From: Chrysoporthe austroafricana
Taxonomy: Eukaryota > Ascomycota > Sordariomycetes > Diaporthales > Cryphonectriaceae
Direction: 5' to 3'
NCBI GenBank assembly: GCA_001051155.2
Contig: JYIP02000003.1
Location: forward strand, 1,054,001-1,118,000
Length of the DNA stretch: 64,000 nucleotides
The position numbers were made by a program, and so were the translations under genes. Positions 12,344 to 48,157 of the stretch are shown piece by piece. The notes under the pieces were generated by a model. The model made no database searches. It was not told the DNA's origin and saw nothing but the letters and a program-made list of their open reading frames with translations. Position 1 is the stretch's first letter, and every line of letters starts with the position of its first letter.

Positions 12344-15130
12344 ATGATTACACGAAAGCCGTTGCCGGGGGACGCTATGGTCGACCCGAATTCTGCTTCA
12401 CAATCGAACATGCAGGGCTCGCGCGAGAGCGCGACCGCCACTCCGGCTGTCACCGAGGTGGAACAGACGCAGCAGACCGAAGCCTCAGATTCGGATGTTG
12501 AGAGCTGGGAGCTGTCGAGTGCTAGCGGGGACGAGGACGAAGACGAGGAACAAGACACATTAGGGTCATCGCCCCGCAGAAAAGAGCAGGAAGACCAGCT
12601 GCCAGTCGCCGAAGGTGGTGACGCAGCGGTACATGTGGTTGATCATGGCGAGGATCCCAGCACACTGCCGCCAACCGTCACTACAGACCGGGAAGAGAGG
12701 GCCAGGAGCAAAACACCAGACTCAAATTTGCCTGCGCCCGGAATCGAAGGTCTCACTGAGACGAACCCTTTCAGGAGGAAGATGTCACTATCAAGGCAGC
12801 ATAGTGCAACCGTACTACCGACCTCTTCCGAGACACCCCCAATGCCCCCGTCTGAGAATTTTGCCAAGCTGAGTCTTAATGACCCAAGCAACAACCCGTG
12901 GCAGCCCGCGCTCGACGATCAGCAGAAAACAACCGTGCCATCATTACTGTCTACAGGAGCAGACCAAGAGCCTGCGGATAATATCTGGGCTTCTCAGGTC
13001 CCCTCGCGGGCAACATCCACGGGACCGCCCCCGCCGCCGGCCTTTCCGCCTGAACAGTTCGTGCCACAGGACGAAAAGGCCGGCTGGGGCGACGAGCTTC
13101 CCGAACCCGAAAGTTCTCCCATCGCTGTGCCTCCTTCATTCCGCAAGCCATTGGAAGGCGAGGCGCTGGAAGAGGATAGCCATGCTTGGGACGACGTTGC
13201 GACGCAGGATAAAGGCAAAGCACCCATGACTGCGCCTCCTATATCAGGCCCCCAGACAGAGGGCGCGCGCGGAGATGAGTGGAATTTGATTGACAATGAG
13301 CCGACGCCTGGTGCATCTGGAACCGAGGGGCCATCTCAACCCACGATACAGGCGCCGAACCTGACTCCATGCAACGGCGAGAAGGCTCCCGCGGCGCCGC
13401 CAAGGGCACAAATATCTGCGAAGGCGGAAACATATCAAGTCAAGAACATCAACTGGCACGACGCGGTCACCGCGAAAGACCTGCGGAAATCACCGATATT
13501 GGTCCAGAATGCGAACGGTCCCTGTCCGCTGATGGCGCTCGTCAACGCGCTGACATTGTCGACGCCCGCGAGCGCGGAAGATGCTGTTTTGGTGAACACT
13601 CTTAAGACGAGAGAACAAATCAGCCTCGACCTGCTTCTCAACGCCGTCTTCGATGAACTGATGTCTGAGAGGAGGATGACTCCAGATGTGTCGCTACCGG
13701 ACGTCACGGAGCTATATGACTTTTTGAAGGGCTTGCATACTGGAATGAACGTCAATCCTCGATTCGTCCCAACGGAGGAGATCGAGATGGCTTTCAAGCG
13801 AACCTCCCTCACACACATTCACCCATCCCAAAGGGGGAATCTGATTCCTGGCACGTTTGAAGACACGAAGGAGATGGCATTCTATAGGACATTCAAGATA
13901 CCGCTGATCCATGGTTGGCTGCCCTCGAAGGACGACCCGGCCTATGGCGCATTCAAACGCCGAGCGGAATCATACGAAGATGCCCAGAACATCTTGTTTA
14001 GGGAGGAAGAGTTAGAAGACAAGCTCAGCACTCCTAACGGCGAGGGCCTCTCAGCAGAGGAGCAAGGCATCTATCAGGATGTTCTGACCATCAAGGCCTT
14101 CCTGTACTCAGCCGCCACGCAGTTGACGCCGTACGGTCTTGAGGTCATTACTAGGGCTATGCGACCTGGTTCCGTGGCGATCTTGTTCAGAAACGACCAC
14201 TTCTCTACCCTCTATCGCCACCCGCAAACTGAACAAATATTTGCTCTCGTCACCGATGCGGGCTACGCAGGGCACCAAGAGGTCGTCTGGGAGTCGTTAG
14301 TCGACGTCAATGGTGAACGTTCTGAATTTTTTTCAGGCGACTTCAGAGTGGTCGGGGGACCATCTCAAGCCGAACAATACGTGGCATCAGGGAGCGCTTC
14401 TGCATCCAACAGCCAACAGGGGTGGACAACGGTATCCGCAAAGAAAGGGAAGGGGAAGAAGCAGCCCGAGGAACCACCCCTGTCACCAAAGGAACAAGAA
14501 GATCATGACCTCGCCCTCGCCCTTCAACTTCAAGAGGAAGAAGACCAGCGCCATCGTACCGAGCAAGCCCAGCGACGCCGCGAAGCCCAACTCTCCGAGG
14601 AATTTATTGAGCAGCAAGCGGTGCGGCGCGGTCCCGTCGGGCTGCGACAGGGGAGTACCAACAACGTTGGTCAGCAGCCAGCACAAACACCAGATAGCCG
14701 ACGCGGTTCTTCTACCAGCGTAGCACGGAGCAGTACAAACAGTGTCGCAGCGCGCGGTGGTCGACCCGCGCAGCAGCATGTCAGGCCCCTGGTGCCACCA
14801 GTCCTCCGTTCACAAGGGGTAAATCGACCCGCCGATGCGGAGGATGACGATGCGCCGCCGTCCTACGAAGACGCTGCCAAGGATAGACCATATGTCCCGC
14901 CTGCAGGTCACCCAAGCCACCCGAACTCGAGCTTCAGCCCGTCGGTAGGCAGCCCTGTGCCGTCGAGCAGCACGCCTAGATTGCTGCCGTCGCGGGCTCC
15001 GGGAGTTGCAGGTGTTCCGCATGGTCCGCCGACTGGTGGATTCCGGAGGGGCAGTAGTGCGTATCGACAGGGTGTCGCGCCGACTGCTGCGAGTGGGGGT
15101 GGAAGGGATAAGGACTGTATTGTCATGTAG
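12344..15130 (+). CDS. MINDY-family K48-linkage deubiquitinase with C-terminal CaaX box
   Basis: A single uninterrupted exon encodes 928 residues. Residues about 370-690 are a MINDY catalytic domain (FAM63 family). The catalytic Cys394 is in NANGPCPLMALVN, and the catalytic His619 is in RNDHFSTLYRH. MINDY enzymes trim long Lys48-linked polyubiquitin chains. An acidic, Ala/Leu-rich helix at about 722-738 (DLALALQLQEEED) matches an MIU-type ubiquitin-binding motif just after the catalytic domain. The N-terminal 360 residues are acidic, Pro/Ser-rich and probably disordered. The last four residues are CIVM, a prenylation-type CaaX box, suggesting membrane attachment. Start ATG 12344 was chosen as the first in frame; ATG 12377 is an alternative. 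Enzyme class is firm; prenylation is inferred. Confidence 0.92.
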   Translation: MITRKPLPGDAMVDPNSASQSNMQGSRESATATPAVTEVEQTQQTEASDSDVESWELSSASGDEDEDEEQDTLGSSPRRKEQEDQLPVAEGGDAAVHVVDHGEDPSTLPPTVTTDREERARSKTPDSNLPAPGIEGLTETNPFRRKMSLSRQHSATVLPTSSETPPMPPSENFAKLSLNDPSNNPWQPALDDQQKTTVPSLLSTGADQEPADNIWASQVPSRATSTGPPPPPAFPPEQFVPQDEKAGWGDELPEPESSPIAVPPSFRKPLEGEALEEDSHAWDDVATQDKGKAPMTAPPISGPQTEGARGDEWNLIDNEPTPGASGTEGPSQPTIQAPNLTPCNGEKAPAAPPRAQISAKAETYQVKNINWHDAVTAKDLRKSPILVQNANGPCPLMALVNALTLSTPASAEDAVLVNTLKTREQISLDLLLNAVFDELMSERRMTPDVSLPDVTELYDFLKGLHTGMNVNPRFVPTEEIEMAFKRTSLTHIHPSQRGNLIPGTFEDTKEMAFYRTFKIPLIHGWLPSKDDPAYGAFKRRAESYEDAQNILFREEELEDKLSTPNGEGLSAEEQGIYQDVLTIKAFLYSAATQLTPYGLEVITRAMRPGSVAILFRNDHFSTLYRHPQTEQIFALVTDAGYAGHQEVVWESLVDVNGERSEFFSGDFRVVGGPSQAEQYVASGSASASNSQQGWTTVSAKKGKGKKQPEEPPLSPKEQEDHDLALALQLQEEEDQRHRTEQAQRRREAQLSEEFIEQQAVRRGPVGLRQGSTNNVGQQPAQTPDSRRGSSTSVARSSTNSVAARGGRPAQQHVRPLVPPVLRSQGVNRPADAEDDDAPPSYEDAAKDRPYVPPAGHPSHPNSSFSPSVGSPVPSSSTPRLLPSRAPGVAGVPHGPPTGGFRRGSSAYRQGVAPTAASGGGRDKDCIVM

Positions 15131-29387: not shown

Positions 29388-32269
29388 TCAGCGGATGACA
29401 TCGCCTTCCTTCTCAATTCCCTCCAGCTCCTCCAGGATGTCACTCCCGCCGAGTAGTCCTGCTCCACCAACTGTTGCCTTCTTCCCACCTGACCACACCT
29501 CGTGAAACTTGATGCTCTCGTCACTGGCAGCGACAACGATGCATCCCTCCATAGCAGTGCGGTTCCGTCTTTTCTCCCTAACGCATCTGTCTCGATCCCG
29601 ATCCCTGGGATTGCCCCTCGCATCCCTCGCAGCCCGGTAGTCTGGCGGCCCCTGCGGGTAGGATATCGCATACAGTGCCCGGTGCTCCCCTTCCCATGGG
29701 ATGGCCGCCACCTGCTGACACTCAGGCCAAGAGAACACAGCTATTCGATAAGGATGATCCGGCTGGGCGTACCCGAATGTCGCAGCGATCTCTCGCCGTG
29801 TGGTGCTCCATATCAAGCTCGTCACCTGCGCATGCACCGCGATGGTAGCCAGCGCTACCCCCGACGTCGTATGGTAGAAGTGAATGCACTTGTCATGAGA
29901 CCCACCGCTAGTGGCGACGAGGCCATCCCGCCAGGGGCAGAACGCGATGGCTTTGACGGCAGCCGTGTGCTCCCATCGATGCTTGGCTTGCCGCTCGCCG
30001 ATGTTGCGTGGATCACCGGATGTATCGGAGACGGGGTTCCGGAAGGAATCTGATGCAGCGGATATGTTTGCAGGTAGGGACGGTGGGTAGCGGGGCTCGG
30101 CACGCTCAGCGAGAATGCGGTTGAGGTCCCAGAAGCGCGTATTGGTGTCAGCGCGGAAGAAACGAGCAAAGGGTGATACTATGGGCATGCTGGAGAGGCG
30201 ATCGTCGATCGACCCGATGGCCGCAGAGTTGTTGATGCTACCAGACGAAGCAGGTCTCTGTCGTTGGCTTGATAAGGAAACCCCAGGGAGCGAGGACGAA
30301 ATCATACTTATCGAAACACCAGCCGCTCGGGCAGCATCCTCGATGCGACGTTGCAGCTCAAGCCGTGGTCTATCAGTGGTCTGAGGCGGAATCGGCTCTC
30401 GATACGCAGCCCAAGCATTTTCGGCATCTTGGTCCTCATCGAGTTCCGCGGGCGGATCAGTGATTTTCTGAGCCTCAAAAAGAAAACAGATATTGTCATT
30501 CCCCCCTGTGGCAAACAAATTGCCACTTGGAGACCACGAAAGGCCGCATATCTGCTGCGTATGAGCCGTGATATAAGCGAGGCACTGCACACTTCCTCGC
30601 CAGTTGTGGCGATATGTCTCCTACGACCGAGGCCACTCAACGGCATAGTAGAAGACATTGCCATGCTCGTCGCCAACGAGGAGATCTTCGTTCTCGACAA
30701 GGGGCCCGGGATTGTAAGGGCTGATCGATGGACGCAGAGTGACGGTGGGTTTCTAGCTGACACAGGCAACAGGTGCTTCTTCGACATGTGGAGCGAATCT
30801 GAATCGGGGATATTGGCGGTCGTAAAGTGTCGGAGCGTCCCAGAGCGACATTAGATTTAAGATCCCGTTTGATCGACCATACGCGAGGATGCACTTCTTG
30901 CCTTGGGCGGATGAGAAATCGAGTGTGGTCAGCCACGAGATGTCACCGAGCCCGTTGTCCTCGAGCGTCTGGACCCCTGTGAGCTCAGACCAGCTATAGA
31001 GCCTCGTACCAAGACCGACAGCCAGAGTCTGGCAAATGGGGTCGAAGGCCAGGATGGAGCAGTAGTAATCGTCTCTGAGGTTTGGTGCATCGAGGACCTT
31101 GAAAGGAGCAACTGGCAGCGTCCGCAGCTCGGGCGCGTGTTTGGGTGACTTCCTTGTAGGATGATCTTCTCTGACCAACTGCGTTCCATTCCAGTACGTC
31201 TTGCGCCCCGATTGACGGTTGAACGCCTTCGGTTGCCTCTCCAACATGGTCGATAAGCGATCAGCACCAAGTATTTTCGACGACTAGTCGATCTCGAAAG
31301 CTGACGCGAGCCGGGCCTCGTGCTTCTCGACATCTTCTTGAGCTTTGGGTCTCGAAGGAGGAAACTGTGTATTGAACATGGGAGCATTGGTGCCGCTGGT
31401 GAAAAGACCGCCTCGACCGTCCTCAATGGCTCCGTGACTGGGGGCCGTGGCCCCGAGAGACGAGACACTACCGCTTCCCTAGGTTCAATGTTAGCTGTAG
31501 GCATCACAACAAAGGCCCTCAATCTAGGGTAACCTCGTCATGGGTATTCTGATATTGTAGTAGGCGCGCGTGCCATCTCATGAGCAGGGAGACGAAGACT
31601 CACCGCCTCCCTCTCTGTCTGGCTGTCCGAGGCTGAATCGAGGACTGTCCTACTCTGACTCGACCTTCTTGCCTTTCGGGATTCTGTCGGAGAGGGTGGC
31701 AAAGCCCGCCGCCTAAAGCAGAAAGGATCAGGAGCATCTTGGTTGTGACGCACAAGTCGTTCGCAGGGCGAGAGATCTTGCAAGGGCCTGGTTGTACGCA
31801 GTTTCTCCGATCCAGGTGTTCCGTGGTCCCTCATAGGCACAAAACGATCCGGAGCTCGCAGTGAGCTGGCTCTAGATCCATTGATGGCGGTATTGTCAGA
31901 TCCATGCCGACAGTGAGCGGGTTTCGGTTGCGGGATCGTTGGGTACGAATCTGTCCGTGAGACGCGCCTCCTGGATACCCGAGGAAGAGTTGCGAACTTC
32001 TCGCGCCCAACACTTGGCGTGGATGAGGTTCCGTGACCTGGCGCGTTGTGCCCAGATGTTTCCGAGTCCGACTCTTCAGAGCTAGCCCCGTCGTATGAAC
32101 TCAGACCGACGGACAGAAACGTCCGGTCCAGACGATATTTGGGAAGGGACCTTGTTGGAGAGGTCTCGAGAGAGCCATATCCGGAGTCCGCAGAACGGCC
32201 AGTGCGGCATGGTGGGTCAAGACACAGCTGTTGCATGCGCAGAGTGACAGGCGTGCTAGGTGCGGCCAT
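29388..32269 (-). CDS. AMA1: AMA1-type meiosis-specific APC/C activator with three in-frame TAG codons
   Basis: Two exons on the minus strand: 31604-32269 (222 codons) and 29388-31478 (697 codons including stop), joined in phase 0. If all internal TAGs are read through, the protein has 918 residues. Exon 1 carries the C-box DRFVPMRD (141-148) that contacts the APC/C, and a family block LSPCERLVRHNQDAPD. Exon 2 holds a WD40 propeller (ICGLSWSPSGNLFATGG, KAIAFCPWRDGLVATSGG, LIWSTTRREIAATFGYAQP, GCIVVAASDESIKFHEVW). It ends in Ile-Arg, the tail by which Cdc20/Cdh1/Ama1 dock on the APC/C. TAG interrupts codons 287, 464 and 508. The latter two fall in PVACVS-x-KP and EWPRS-x-E, where I expect Trp. 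No TAA, TGA or frameshift occurs. Unedited mRNA would yield only 286 residues. Sexual-stage A-to-I editing (UAG to UGG) is the favoured explanation; a nonsense-bearing pseudogene is the alternative. Confidence 0.88.
30621..30623 (-). other. In-frame TAG 3 (codon 508), candidate A-to-I editing site
   Basis: The middle A is at + position 30622. The reading is FYYAVEWPRS-x-ETYRHNW; Trp is expected at x. The TAG lies in the 8-nt loop of CTC/GAG nested inside a GTGGC/GCCAC stem (30606-30636). Confidence 0.6.
30753..30755 (-). other. In-frame TAG 2 (codon 464), candidate A-to-I editing site
   Basis: The middle A is at + position 30754. The reading is EEAPVACVS-x-KPTVTLRPS; homologues as I recall them have Trp at x. 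I found no strong hairpin here by eye. Confidence 0.6.
31284..31286 (-). other. In-frame TAG 1 (codon 287), candidate A-to-I editing site
   Basis: The middle A is at + position 31285. The reading around it is ASAFEID-x-SSKILGADR. It sits in the CUAG loop of a hairpin at 31275-31299: stem TTTCGA/TCGAAA, a 3-nt bulge, then CGA/TCG. The base before the A is U, the context preferred by fungal editing. Confidence 0.6.
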
Positions 32270-42927: not shown

Positions 42928-45900
42928 TTACCATTCAGAGGCAGCGGTACTATCAATCATCGCCATGCCATCTCGAAGCGGACAGAAAATCGTCCCAGCA
43001 GCATTGATATTCAGTAGCTTCATACTTCGATATGGCAACCAGTCTCTGGGTATGGAGAAGTGTCGCGTGATATCCTCCAGCCCTTTCGAGGACCTAAGAT
43101 GCCACGTACATAGCCTCAATGATTTATCGAAGAAGACTAACTTCTCGTTTGAAAGAACATTGAGTGGTATCTCGGCCTCGGCTATGACTTCTGGTGGTAT
43201 GCTCATTGTATAGACACCGTCGCTAGGATAGTCGGCCCTGTGATCAAACTTGGTCGTATCTAGCACTTCGAATCGAGAAGATAGAATTCGTGAAGCTGTT
43301 CGTCTGGAGATTGTAACCAGGACATATCCAGGAAAGTGGGTGTTCCTGATCTGTTGAACTTCTTCATGGTCATTTTCATTGTTGTCAATGGTAATATCTG
43401 GTACAGGTCTATGAGTCAGGAACCCTCCAATGGCCTTTGAGCTGTGTTTAAGGCTGTCTTGTGGTCGTGAATAGGTCCTCATCTCTGCAAAGTCTTGCGC
43501 GATCCAGCTATAGATGCCAATGTGGGAAGGACTGACGGAGATCAATTGATCGGGGGACCAGGGATGACTCGTCCATAGTTGTGATGCCACGCTAGTTGGA
43601 CGTGTATGTTCGAGTGAACTCGATTCAAGAGACCATATCTGAGCAGAGCCTCGAAAAGCCACCAACAGCTTGCTAGATTCAGCCGAAAAGAGTAGTTGCA
43701 GTATACCGCCTTCTGAAATTTGTGGCTTGAAACGCTTAAGGCGACGATGAGTCCAGCGATTTTCAGACAGACATATCTCAAGAAGAGTCAGACGCCCGCT
43801 GATTTCTGAGTAGATCAAGCGATCTCCTTGATTGTTCCATGCAACATGCTCGATGCTCATCCCTGTTGCCGTTCTGCCAACTTCAAGCTTTGACCCCGTC
43901 CTAGAATCAAATAGCCAGATGAGGCCATCTTCATCTCCAACGCATAGTAATGGGCCTTTGGGCGCAGGATTCACCACAGTGATTGGCGGACAGTCGTCTA
44001 CAAACGATTCCGATGCGATGTTAGACTGTTCAACACTCTCATCGGGGGAAGACTGGCTGTTCACGGCTTGGTCGTCTGCTGCCGACAGTCGTATAAGGCT
44101 GTTAGGCTCCCACACAGTGCAAGAGTCTCCTCGAAGCTGAAAGAAACGGCGTCCATCTTGGCTGAATGAAAAGGCGCCAGTCATATCACCAGTGGAGGTG
44201 ATCTGGTAAATCAGTGTTGAGCTCTGGTAATCAAAGAGCTTAATATTGCCCCCCACGCCTTGAATCGCGTAGACTTCTCCGTCAGGGCTGCAGTGTATGT
44301 CGGCTGGCATTCGCCCTGGGTCTGGTGGTTGTTCCTGAAGCGTGCCGTCAAGAACACAGAATTTGAAGGCGTAGCCATCCAGAAACAGCCCTGTGAGCTC
44401 CTCGCCAAGTGGATGCCAGGATAATTTATCAGCAAATGGAAGCGGTGCAGATGGACGATCGCGTTGTCTTTTTCGACTTATTCGCTTGATAATCCTGGGC
44501 GGATTGATAGACCATATCGTCAATGGGAATCTTCTGTATGCCGCAGCTATCATAGATCCATCAGGACTAATGGCCAGTGCTGATGGGGAATTCAGATTTG
44601 TGCCGTTAATAGGATCAACGTCGTTCAGTATCGAAGAGTCAAGGGGGGCCCAAGCTGTATCAGGATCTTCGAAGTCGTATTTGAGTAGACACCGGCGGTT
44701 AGAGCCCATCAAAAGTGTCCTGTCGTTGTTAATAAAGCTTAGACATAACCCTGCCATGTCAGGGAGATTGATGACTCGATGAAGGACTTGTCCGGTTTGG
44801 GGTGCCCATATTTTCGTCGTGTATGATCCGTAAGTTGCAAGTCGGTCTCCGCCAGTATCAAAGCACATGGTTGACACTCTTTCAGAATGTTGGAGCTCTC
44901 GAGCCATTTGAAATGTCGTGGAGTCCCACAGTGTGACAGTCCCAACCTCATTAGTCACCGCCAGATAGCGACCGGAACATGTGACGATAGACGCCTGATG
45001 GCCGCTGCCCACAGAGACACTTGCAAGGCAATCATCCCATTCGGAAAGCTGACCGCGAACTGAGATACTTGAGAATACAGATCTCGCGAACAATCGGTGA
45101 ATAGCGGAGGTGATAGGACAGAATGGAGGGATTGAGGTAAATATGGACGATGGGTCTCTGGACAGGATGCCTCCAAACTTGCCCGGAATTTTCAAAAGGT
45201 CTCGAGTCCAGGATTCTAGCAATTCTAGGTCCTCAAATCTGCGCATCGCAGGGTCTCTTGCGACATCCAGGCGGCGTTTTCGATGAATGTACGAAGTCAG
45301 TGCATGCGATGCTTCAATGAGGACCTTCAGTTGACCCATTGTAGCAAGGGTCTGGACCCAAACGAGCACATTAGAGTGGGTGAAGAACTGAACGAGCATA
45401 TCCAAGTGCTCATCAGAGTCGCTATCATATCTAATGGCCTGGAGATGATGTGGCCAAGATGTCGCACGATATTCAAGCAATTTCAGAGTCGTGGGCGTGA
45501 GTTTGGCTCGTAGGCTTCTGTCCATGAAAGCGCTCATACACTTCTCAAAAAGCTCACGGTGAGCACCAGTGGCCTCCAAAGAGAATGGTAGTGTTGATGT
45601 AGTAGCGAGATATTCGCGAGCTGACTGATGAAGCAGCGCAATCTTGTGGCCGCCTTCAACGACGACAAAGTGTCCGCAGAGTCTGTCGATGGTGTGCGAA
45701 ATAGCGAGTAGTTGGCCATGTTCAGGCTGGAGAAGAGCCCCGAGCTCGTCCACTGAAATAGCCCGTCGTGTGTACATGGCCCAGAGTAATAGTTGGCGGC
45801 AGAGACTTTTGTCGGAGGGTCTTCGAATTCGGCATATGGTATCTTCCATACGCTTGTAAAGATCTTCCATGCCCGGAGGCAGCTCTTCAAGGCGCGCTCT

Positions 45901-48157
45901 TACATCGCCTTCGGTATGACAGTCCTTGATCTCTTCGAGGACCAAATATAACCACAAAAAGTTGTCATTCGCGCTTTCCAGGATTGTGCTCATGATTTCT
46001 TGCTTGATGACGGGACTCCAGCTAAGATAATCCAACTGCTCTGACGTGTAAAGCTGAATGTCTGTCGTATCATGGTCTATGGACAATGCCGAAGAGCACA
46101 CTCTTGATTGTACCCTCTCATGAGCTGCCGAAAGAGTTGGATTCCAACGGCTTGTCACAAGACATTTGATTGGGCTGTTCGAGGTGCTAATGTCTGCGAG
46201 CATTTCGAACATGTGCTGCGGCGAGCCGCACTCGTCAAGGCCATCTATGACCCAATACAGAGTTGGCAGAAATTCCATCTGGAAAAGTAGGCCGACAAAA
46301 AGCTTCTTCCACGTGGCTCTCCAGTCAGATTCTTTCAACTTATACCCGCCATCGGAAAGCTTTCGAAGTGAGCGTCGATACGCAGGAATCTGGACGGCTG
46401 CTTGGTATGCTAAGGACCGGAGAAGCGCTGACATCGAGCGTTTGGTCTCATCCCCACTTCTGAAGAAAAATTGCTGTACTGCTGCGCCTTCTTCTCGGAG
46501 ATGATTGACCAAGAAAGATGACAAGACTGACTTGCCACGACCAGGTCGACCGTAGATCCACTGCAACTCAGATGTCGAGTTGGATGAGACCCACGACTCG
46601 ATCTCCGGGCGGTTCAAGATCCACGTGCACGTCGAATCCGCCCTTCGATTCCAAAAGAGATTAAGATCATGATCCATTGACTCAGGGACAGAAAGCAGAG
46701 TTTGAAGGGTCTCTAGCTCGTTGCTCGGACGTTGGGAGCCTGCACATGTCAGAATTCTTGTTACCCTGTACTGTATTCTCTAATGGAGAACCAGAGATAC
46801 AAGATGGCGCTGAAGGGCAAGGGCCGGAAGAAAGGAATAGCTTACCGTCGGCGGTATAGGATGACACCAGAGATTTCAATGCCGATAATACGACCCTGTA
46901 GTTGCTGTCCTCTGGACTATCGAATTTGCACACTCCATGATGATCAGCGTTTAGAGATCTCGATATCTCTCCAGGATAGCCTAGTTTAGCTGTTTCCTGG
47001 TCGAGTATCAACTGAAAATCGATGGTTAACTAACAGAAGACAGGGTAATGATCTCAGTTGGACATCTTACAGTAGAGGCGAAGCCGATTGATGTTTGTAG
47101 TGTCTCATAGAACGAGAATATCTGCAGCTTTGGTGCACTGTGTCGGAACTGCTCGTTGATGTTCTTTAGAAATGGCCCATTTCTGACCAGTTCTGCGATA
47201 TACTGCTTCTGCGAGCTGAGTGGCGTTGTCGACAAGACCTTGTTTAAAACATTTGCCAAGTCTGCACCTCGATGAGGCGTAGATAAGAATATCACAGCTT
47301 TGACAGCTTCAGCAATCCTTCTATAATGTTTGTCTATTGATCCTTCCAGGAACGCCTTCTTGAATACAAGACCACCCATAGAATGGGTGATAAATATGAG
47401 TGGGACCTGAGAATGCACGAGTCAGTAAAGTAGGTCTATAATACGATTGCTTTGCAGGACATCAGGGCTGGAATTTTGAACTGACGCTACCGATGTGAAA
47501 GCTGCTTCCTGAAGGGCTTCTGCCGTACAAAAGGTCATACAAAAGGTTCTTTGCAAAGTCTGCCACTCCCATGGCGCTCGTCTGGGAGGCCGAGTGAAAG
47601 AACGCGTTGTATCCAAAGGTGAAAATCCTGGCTTTTCCCACATCATGGTCCGATGGGAGCCACTCTTGCGGCCAAAACAGCCTTGAATCTTTGTTCTTTG
47701 ACCATGAGAGCCTACTCGAGCCACCCAAACCGTGCACAAATATTATATCAGCGACTGGTGGCGCCTCAGGCTCGTGGAGGAGAGTGAGTCCCTGTGGGTC
47801 GGAAGCTCTATCAAGTGAGCCATGCTTAGCGTGACTCGGAAGTGCCGCAGGTGTACTGTAGCTGCGATCCGCGGTTGCGCGTATATCATTCGTGTTTGTG
47901 TTGCTGATTTGCGCTAGACTCTTCTGTCCCTCGGATGGAAACAACGTTACTTCACTTCCCACAAAACTGTTTGCTTCGGCAGACTCTACGGACTCGGAGT
48001 TATGGGCTCGATTGTCGCTTGGTTTTCGAATGTGCTTTGAGGACGAGAAAAGCTTCCGCGGCGAGAACTGCAGATACCATCTCTACATTAGCAATTTGTG
48101 ACCGTTGACTGTGACTGGTTTTAGATCCTTTCCTCCAAAATGCTAGGACCTTACCAT
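42928..48157 (-). CDS. Fungal NLR: alpha/beta hydrolase (SesB-like) - NACHT - WD40 repeats
   Basis: Five exons on the minus strand (48155-48157, 47486-48082, 47071-47406, 46846-47011, 42928-46739) join in frame to 1637 residues. The first exon codes only Met. Residues about 110-350 are a lipase/esterase-like hydrolase: oxyanion-hole IFVHGLGG (116-122), nucleophile elbow THSMGGL with Ser209, and a C-terminal His in NADHHGVCKF (336/337). This is the SesB-like effector domain. The NACHT ATPase follows: Walker A GRPGRGKS (431-438), Walker B YWVIDGLDEC (529-538), sensor LVTSRW. From about residue 950 degenerate WD40-like repeats form the ligand-sensing end (TVTLWDSTTFQMARELQH, TTKIWAPQTGQVLH). Such STAND proteins act in non-self recognition and programmed cell death. 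The stop lies inside a perfect GTAAGT motif, which is probably incidental. Confidence 0.93.

What the first reader, a model, noticed from the sequence alone, without database searches (positions are those of the whole stretch)
29388..32269. AMA1 homologue interrupted by exactly three in-frame TAG stops: likely obligate multi-site A-to-I stop editing
Seen: one 697-codon exon frame (29388-31478, minus strand) contains TAG at codons 287, 464 and 508 and no TAA, TGA, indel or frameshift. Conserved WD40 sequence lies between and after the stops, and the frame ends in Ile-Arg, the APC/C-docking tail. Two TAGs fall where I expect Trp (PVACVS-x-KP, EWPRS-x-E). Known: A-to-I mRNA editing without ADAR enzymes occurs in the sexual stage of Sordariomycetes and turns UAG into UGG, and meiosis-specific genes are among the reported targets; I recall an AMA1 orthologue in Fusarium being one, unverified here. 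Inference: full-length activator appears only when all three stops are edited, coupling a meiotic APC/C activator to the sexual stage. Needing three independent edits in one mRNA would make a stringent switch.
Basis: partly seen in the sequence, partly recalled or inferred. Interest (0 to 1): 0.95.

Follow-up and report, generated by a model that had tools for sequence, protein, structure and literature searches.

The report
AMA1 gene with three editable stops
A fungal gene that helps run meiosis carries three stop codons exactly where its near relatives have the amino acid tryptophan, which fits a known system that rewrites such stops in the messenger RNA during sexual development, and in related fungi the same gene seems to carry stops at changing places.

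Summary
A single-copy AMA1 orthologue (918 codons, two exons) has exactly three internal stops, all TAG, at codons 287, 464 and 508, with no frameshift, and ends in Ile-Arg-TGA. It groups with Diaporthales (nearest named: Cryphonectria parasitica). All three TAGs fall on Trp in close relatives: site 464 is Trp in 112 of 112 proteins with a residue there, 508 in 92 of 112; 287, Arg in most listed fungi, is Trp in 11 of 14 Diaporthales proteins with a residue. Related proteins break off exactly before codon 287 (2), 464 (11) and a fourth Trp codon, 817 (16); annotated relatives skip stretches over these sites. The two stretches matched wholly downstream of the stops are 94% identical to C. parasitica. 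Decay, RIP, reassignment or real introns explain this poorly. Best reading: UAG-to-UGG editing by the known sexual-stage A-to-I system; the Fusarium orthologue is a reported target. Editing itself was not observed: no RNA and no relative's DNA was available. New against the papers I could search: three sites in this gene and turnover of sites across an order. The "stringent switch" is inference; neutral accumulation of stops is a serious rival.

The parts
31604..32269 (-). AMA1 exon 1 (codons 1-222), with ATG and C-box-like motif
   Evidence: homologous exon 1 proteins
31829..31849 (-). C-box-like motif DRFVPMR, codons 141-147 (APC/C-binding motif; motif meaning recalled)
   Evidence: PDRFxPxR in the alignment consensus
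31479..31603 (-). intron, 125 bp, GTGAGT...AG
   Evidence: of the two donors printed (frame stop-free upstream) only this one keeps the frame and leaves just the three TAGs
29388..31478 (-). AMA1 exon 2 (codons 223-918 plus TGA), open apart from three TAGs
31284..31286 (-). in-frame TAG, codon 287 (site 1)
   Evidence: relatives P0121 and P0122 end here exactly
30753..30755 (-). in-frame TAG, codon 464 (site 2), Trp in 112 of 112 listed relatives with a residue (8 more have a gap)
   Evidence: 11 relatives end here exactly
30621..30623 (-). in-frame TAG, codon 508 (site 3), Trp in 92 of 112 listed relatives with a residue (8 more have a gap)
   Evidence: skipped in Coniella and in or beside the skip of six Xylariales-type annotated proteins
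29694..29696 (-). codon 817, TGG here; the fourth site, where 16 relatives' proteins end
   Evidence: codon read
29493..31055 (-). predicted WD40 propeller span (first to last strand of the model), with a low-confidence insertion
29388..29396 (-). C-terminal Ile-Arg tail and TGA terminator

Best explanation
The gene is a functional AMA1, the meiosis-specific activator of the APC/C ubiquitin ligase. Three of its Trp codons have mutated from TGG to TAG in the genome. In vegetative cells any transcript would stop at codon 287 and give a 286-residue fragment with the C-box but no WD40 propeller and no Ile-Arg tail. In sexual tissue the known Tad2-Tad3-Ame1 deaminase would turn UAG into UGG at all three sites, and full-length AMA1 is made. 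Shown here: gene structure, TAG-only stops, Trp at each site in relatives, the same sites interrupted in relatives, strong conservation downstream. Inferred: that editing happens in this species, at all three sites, only in sexual tissue, and that the product is then active.
For: Three stops, all TAG, none TAA or TGA. Trp at site 464 in 112 and at 508 in 92 of the 112 listed proteins with a residue there (120 listed, 8 gaps each); Trp at 287 in 11 of 14 Diaporthales proteins with a residue. Of 30 related proteins that end early within exon 2, 29 end exactly one residue before codon 287 (2), 464 (11) or 817 (16). All 11 that end at 464 fall in a clade of support 1.0 with six named Diaporthales proteins. 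Annotated relatives skip residues at these sites: C. parasitica 281-290 and the stretch from Trp 817 on (aligned gap 819-855); Coniella 490-508 and 806-822; Diaporthe helianthi 450-478; D. australafricana 462-530: the annotation artefact described for edited stops in PMC4817773 and PMC11169179. Deletions in conserved columns of 105 spanning proteins overlap 464, 508 or 817 in 17 of 27, expected 4.0, reached in 0 of 5000 simulations (caveats in the report). Identity to C. parasitica is 94% in the two stretches wholly downstream of the stops, 87% in the piece that holds the stops, 74% in exon 1. Single copy. FgAMA1 is a reported stop-correction target. Top folds are Slp1, Cdh1 and Cdc20 structures. 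Sites 287 and 464 fall in predicted hairpin loops (probability 1.0 and 0.88), the published preference.
Against: No transcript was seen. The stop codon type in relatives is unknown, since only proteins were available. Site 508 lies in a loop with probability only 0.38, and 4 of 13 out-of-frame TAGs of the same gene score above 0.5, so the RNA context does not discriminate. No relative's protein ends exactly at 508; that site rests on this window's DNA and on skips. About 157 codons downstream (561-717, the low-confidence insertion) have no match in the C. parasitica protein, though other Diaporthales proteins cover them (146-153 of 158 columns in four checked; Coniella only 32). The AME1 orthologue among four DUF726 genes was not identified.
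Confidence: 0.86

Rival explanations
1. Recent pseudogene: AMA1 is dead or dying in this species (for example an asexual lineage) and the TAGs are ordinary nonsense mutations.
For: Three stops in a gene that could be dispensable without a sexual cycle; nothing in the window proves expression.
Against: No TAA, TGA, indel or frameshift in 918 codons; the same codons are interrupted in other species; 94% identity to C. parasitica in the two stretches downstream; all three on Trp.
Confidence: 0.06
2. RIP or other G-to-A mutation made the TAGs, without editing (TGG to TAG is CpA to TpA on the other strand).
For: The single-base change has the RIP direction and context (RIP context recalled).
Against: AMA1 is single copy and its RIP indices are ordinary: TpA/ApT 0.52 against 0.66 for the window, 0.48-0.87 over slices; CA index 1.24, as the window. 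RIP would not be expected to hit the same Trp codons in other species. As the mutational origin of single sites it stays possible and does not compete with editing.
Confidence: 0.02
3. The stops lie in real introns that are spliced out.
For: Annotations of relatives place skips over the sites.
Against: The residues around the sites are present in most relatives (82 of 100 non-Diaporthales spanning proteins have a residue at all four sites); 27 relatives' proteins end at 464 or 817 with no tail, which an intron starting GT would not give; residue 464 lies in a confident propeller strand.
Confidence: 0.03
4. UAG is read through by a suppressor tRNA or has been reassigned.
For: Only TAG is affected.
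Against: TAG ends another conserved gene of the window (MINDY deubiquitinase, 15128-15130; 1 of 12 long ORFs whose stop codon I looked at). The tRNA genes of the genome were not scanned.
Confidence: 0.02
5. Editing is real but the extra stops are neutral: once AMA1 is needed only where editing runs, TGG and TAG are nearly equivalent and stops drift in and out (constructive neutral evolution), with no switch function. This competes with the switch reading, not with editing.
For: Sites differ between relatives; at site 508 Trp has moved on to Tyr, Gln or Phe in 23 of 34 Diaporthales tips with a residue, against 10 of 143 others not Trp.
Against: None of 39 Diaporthales tips shows a residue at all four sites in one protein, against 82 of 100 other spanning proteins, which hints that at least one stop is kept; but only 5 of those 39 span codons 287-918 at all, so the contrast is weak.
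Confidence: 0.45

Closest known systems
FgAMA1 of Fusarium graminearum (FGRRES_10728), a stop-corrected meiotic APC/C activator
   Same: Same gene; needs UAG-to-UGG editing in sexual reproduction to encode full length (PMC4817773, PMC11156358, PMC9499528: passages seen). A review says the mutant completes meiosis but makes abnormal ascospores (PMC12582100: passages seen; the primary paper, Hao 2019, is not held).
   Different: I did not learn how many sites FgAMA1 has or whether they are the same codons. Here three sites, in a different order of fungi.
PUK1 of F. graminearum and Neurospora crassa NCU03242
   Same: More than one UAG in one gene (tandem UAGUAG), with site differences between species: N. 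crassa has only the first, F. verticillioides only the second (PMC4817773, passages).
   Different: PUK1's two stops are adjacent; here the three are spread over 222 codons and relatives use a fourth 309 codons further on.
CHE1/zao stop-correction modules (edited in hyphae, OLD-ZAO)
   Same: UAG in a coding frame corrected by A-to-I editing; annotation fails in the same three ways: premature end, late start, false intron (PMC11169179 and PMC12754623: passages).
   Different: Edited in vegetative hyphae or on virus infection, not tied to meiosis.

Membership tests
AMA1 (meiosis-specific APC/C activator, Cdc20/Cdh1 family) | WD40 propeller of the CDC20/Fizzy type | tested here: met
   PF24807 E 4e-53, 181 bits, below its curated cut-off of 200 (I take the long insertion to be the reason); best folds 4aez (Slp1 chain), 4bh6 (Cdh1), Cdc20
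AMA1 (meiosis-specific APC/C activator, Cdc20/Cdh1 family) | C-box and C-terminal Ile-Arg tail | tested here: met
   DRFVPMR at codons 141-147, IR at 917-918; motif definitions recalled
AMA1 (meiosis-specific APC/C activator, Cdc20/Cdh1 family) | Related to named AMA1 proteins more closely than to other activators of the same genome | tested here: met
   relatives named AMA1 (P0041, P0080, P0097, P0105); the next-best loci of the own genome match at 41% and 35% identity, presumably Cdh1 and Cdc20 (not tested further)
AMA1 (meiosis-specific APC/C activator, Cdc20/Cdh1 family) | Expressed and acting in meiosis or ascospore formation | not testable with these tools
   no RNA or genetics for this species
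Stop-correcting (PSC) A-to-I edited fungal genes | In-frame UAG, not UAA or UGA, in an otherwise conserved frame | tested here: met
Stop-correcting (PSC) A-to-I edited fungal genes | UGG (Trp) restores the residue of relatives | tested here: met
   Trp at 464 and 508 in most relatives, at 287 in 11 of 14 Diaporthales proteins with a residue
Stop-correcting (PSC) A-to-I edited fungal genes | U at -1 and hairpin-loop context | tested here: inconclusive
   U at -1 is trivial for UAG; loop probability 1.0, 0.88, 0.38 against 4 of 13 out-of-frame TAGs above 0.5
Stop-correcting (PSC) A-to-I edited fungal genes | A-to-G in sexual-stage transcripts, absent from hyphae | not testable with these tools
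   no transcript data held
Stop-correcting (PSC) A-to-I edited fungal genes | Tad2-Tad3-Ame1 machinery in the genome | tested here: inconclusive
   seven DUF726 matches, none with stops inside, in what I count as four genes; which is AME1 was not settled; Tad2/Tad3 not searched

The most novel reading that the evidence does not exclude
In Diaporthales AMA1 is a permanently edit-gated gene: every species keeps at least one TAG, but the stop moves among a small set of editable Trp codons (287, 464, 508, 817), up to three at a time, and TAG acts as a bridge in codon space through which Trp 508 has become Tyr, Gln and then Phe.
Probability: 0.4. Interest if true: 0.82.

Novelty: new variant of a known kind. 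Interest (0 to 1): 0.64.

Why it matters
Whether restorative stop editing in fungi is adaptive (it gates harmful vegetative expression) or neutral is argued in the literature (PMC12754623, passages). A gene whose stops recur at the same few Trp codons, in varying combinations across one order, makes it testable from existing genomes: the adaptive view predicts that at least one stop is always kept, the neutral view predicts fertile species with none. It also shows that automated annotation splits or trims AMA1 in several Diaporthales.

Tried and rejected
Other stop-corrected genes in this genome by Pfam scan (WD40, kinase 21, DNA methylase 23, MFS 43): mostly noise, because introns read through carry stops of all kinds; of seven stretches fetched and read by eye one kinase has TAG at a conserved Trp and the rest look like intron artefacts, decayed or AT-rich. 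Split-frame census of the window: seven cases, 4 TGA and 3 TAG, uninformative; the AMA1 sites themselves do not qualify at 120 open codons on both sides. AME1 by its reported MV residues: undecided without the Fusarium sequence. RNA context: weak. A first census of deletions over all columns (26 of 77 against 24.7 expected) showed no excess; it mixed in exon 1 and misaligned exon-1 read-through fragments. I then restricted it to 105 spanning proteins and columns 440-918, chose 464, 508 and 817 as the tested columns after seeing where proteins end, and got 17 of 27 against 4.0. Three of those 17 are from one Leotiomycete genus (Lachnellula), a class where editing was looked for in Botrytis and not found (PMC11156358, passage), and two are Pyricularia proteins at the edge of a variable region (gapped at 464 in both of my alignments); without these five it is 12 of 22. 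dN/dS: not possible, no relative's DNA.

An earlier count said 12 proteins end at site 464; the right number is 11.

Full report
What is there. The minus strand of 29388-32269 holds one gene of two exons: 32269-31604 and 31478-29388, split by a 125-bp GT-AG intron. It encodes 918 residues and ends in TGA. Three codons inside are stops, all TAG: 287, 464 and 508. There is no other stop and no frameshift.

What the gene is. Its nearest named relatives are proteins of Diaporthales: Cryphonectria parasitica, Diaporthe, Gnomoniopsis, Discula, Coniella; several more distant relatives are named AMA1. A tree of the region 509-816 puts the window's gene in a clade of 40 tips with support 1.0 (39 relatives plus the query) that contains seven named Diaporthales proteins. 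The genome (48.15 Mb, 22 contigs, unnamed) has one copy; weaker matches on other contigs (41% and 35% identity) are presumably Cdh1 and Cdc20. The gene carries the CDC20/Fizzy propeller (PF24807, E 4e-53 but below its curated cut-off), a C-box-like DRFVPMR and an Ile-Arg tail. An AlphaFold model of the second exon, read through (mean pLDDT 63; many propeller strands above 80), finds Slp1, Cdh1 and Cdc20 structures as its best solved matches (Slp1 named). Codon 464 lies in a propeller strand, 508 at the start of a short helix between strands, 287 in a low-confidence linker before the propeller. A transcript read as written would give 286 residues: C-box, no propeller, no tail.

The three stops sit on Trp. 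In an alignment of the 120 listed relatives (736 were found, from 7991 scored candidates; only the best 120 are shown), site 464 is Trp in 112 and a gap in 8; site 508 is Trp in 92, Tyr 14, Gln 4, Ser 1, Arg 1, gap 8; site 287 is Arg in 88, Gln 4, one each of Trp, Cys, Ile, Met, gap 24. A second search, with the 286-residue open part, returned 75 proteins. Over all three searches, 14 Diaporthales proteins have a residue at 287: 11 Trp, 2 Cys, 1 Arg. Eleven of these 14 are fragments; in a tree of codons 224-463 they fall, all 11, in a clade of support 1.0 with six named Diaporthales proteins.

The same codons are broken in relatives. I aligned the ends of all 262 proteins from the three searches. 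202 have a C-terminus that aligns within two residues; 60 do not and were set aside (52 of them align no further than codon 230, as exon-1 fragments that run on into the intron would). Of the 202, 169 end at codon 918 and 3 at the exon 1/2 border. The other 30 end early in exon 2: 2 exactly before codon 287, 11 exactly before 464, 16 exactly before 817 (TGG here), and one distant protein (29% identity) at 333. Most come from unnamed sequence collections; how their genes were called I do not know, but a run of identical ends is best explained by a stop in the DNA there. Three carry names: Diaporthe ilicicola P0017 and D. australafricana P0018 (both end before 817), and P0188, named AMA1 by its source, which ends before 464. 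Pieces that share the same longest-contig length appear to be parts of one gene: length 9647 gives P0122 (ends at 287) and P0010 (starts after it); length 19206 gives P0186 (Trp at 287, ends at 464) and P0196 (starts after 464, Trp at 508, ends at 817). That linkage is an inference from the printed lengths. D. ilicicola seems annotated as two neighbouring genes (diail_2559 and diail_2560).

Annotated relatives skip the sites. C. parasitica lacks residues 281-290, the stretch from Trp 817 on (its sequence jumps there; aligned gap 819-855) and also 561-717; Coniella lustricola lacks 490-508 and 806-822; D. helianthi lacks 450-478; D. australafricana lacks 462-530. Published work describes this artefact at edited stops: false introns, early ends, late starts (PMC4817773 and PMC11169179, passages). 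Across 105 proteins that span codons 287-915, 17 of 27 short deletions in conserved columns of 440-918 overlap or touch 464, 508 or 817; 4.0 are expected (sd 1.8; 0 of 5000 simulations reach 17). These three columns were chosen after seeing the ends, related species are not independent, 3 of the 17 are Lachnellula (Leotiomycetes) and 2 Pyricularia, and an earlier unrestricted census gave no excess. Six of the site-508 cases are Xylariales-type proteins, so that site may be used outside Diaporthales too.

Constraint. Against C. parasitica the window's gene is 94% identical in the two stretches wholly downstream of the three stops (query residues 550-655 and 650-714 of P0014), 87% in the piece that contains the stops and 74% in exon 1. 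The 561-717 insertion has no counterpart in that annotated protein; four other Diaporthales proteins checked cover it almost fully, Coniella only in part. A dying gene would not be best conserved after its stops. I could not compute dN/dS.

A possible footprint at 508. Among 34 Diaporthales tips with a residue there, 11 are Trp, 13 Tyr, 5 Gln, 5 Phe; among 143 other proteins 133 are Trp, the rest Arg 3, Tyr 2 and one each of Ser, Ala, Leu, Glu, Met. In Diaporthales the other Trp columns I checked (504, 515, 537, 724, 738, 779, 806, 884) are Trp wherever a residue is present. Tyr and Gln codons are one step from TAG and two from TGG; Cys, Arg and Gly, one step from TGG only, do not occur at 508 in that clade. 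Parsimony needs five changes (several nodes are weakly supported). This fits TAG as a tolerated intermediate; it is suggestive only, since paths through Cys or Arg exist.

Mechanism. Reported in papers: Sordariomycetes edit A to I in mRNA during sexual development with Tad2-Tad3 and the DUF726 protein Ame1 (PMC11087585, passages); UAG becomes UGG in PUK1 and another 70 genes of F. graminearum, FgAMA1 among them (PMC11156358, passages). The window's genome has DUF726 matches in what I count as four genes, without stops inside the matches. Inference: the same system reads this gene. The published preference for hairpin loops and flanking bases (PMC9600606, passages) is only loosely met.

Is it a stringent switch? 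Not shown. One unedited stop already blocks the protein in hyphae. Extra stops could lower read-through leak, or be neutral. In PUK1 90% of transcripts carry both of two edits, so three edits need not be limiting. None of 39 Diaporthales tips has a residue at all four sites in one protein, against 82 of 100 other spanning proteins, but only 5 of the 39 span the sites at all, so the claim that one stop is always kept is a hypothesis.

What is new. Stop editing of AMA1 is known. In my searches (open-licence full text only; search listings, and passages of the papers named here) I found no report of it in Diaporthales, of three sites in AMA1, or of site turnover in this gene; one search was a loose query. 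Two relevant primary papers (Hao 2019 on FgAMA1; Qi 2024 on restorative editing) are not held and were not read.

Noticed in passing
29694-29696 (codon 817, TGG here) and relatives P0017-P0021, P0023, P0196-P0201, P0203, P0205, P0206, P0208: A fourth Trp codon of AMA1 is the exact end point of 16 relatives' proteins; intact in the window's species.
   Followed up: yes
G000:C20:3601959-3602558 (L030): A protein-kinase domain with TAG in place of the Trp of a DIWSLG-type motif (motif recalled), 126 open codons before it and 127 after; a candidate second stop-edited gene or a young pseudogene.
   Followed up: partly
G000:C16:2901066-2901590 (L012): One of four DUF726 genes has GYGLG where the other three have GYSLG, i.e. 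Gly in place of the presumed catalytic Ser.
   Followed up: no
P0013 and P0124 (same longest contig length, 3874): The relative P0013 starts at residue 389, just after Trp 385; possibly a further stop site, or a mere start-codon choice.
   Followed up: no
P0052, P0055, P0119 (Lachnellula, Leotiomycetes): All three annotated proteins lack residues 812-817, ending at the same Trp 817, in a class where A-to-I editing was not found in Botrytis.
   Followed up: no
P0106, P0116 (Pyricularia): Both annotated proteins have a gap at site 464 (alignment) or up to it, next to a variable region; a possible further case outside Diaporthales.
   Followed up: no
G000:C20:3424500-3430500 (L027): Stop-riddled stretch with decayed WD40 repeats, by eye AT-rich and possibly RIP-mutated (not measured).
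   Followed up: no
42931-46779, minus strand: Intact 1283-residue NPHP3_N plus beta-propeller protein, a NACHT-like STAND protein of the kind linked to fungal self-recognition (link recalled).
   Followed up: no
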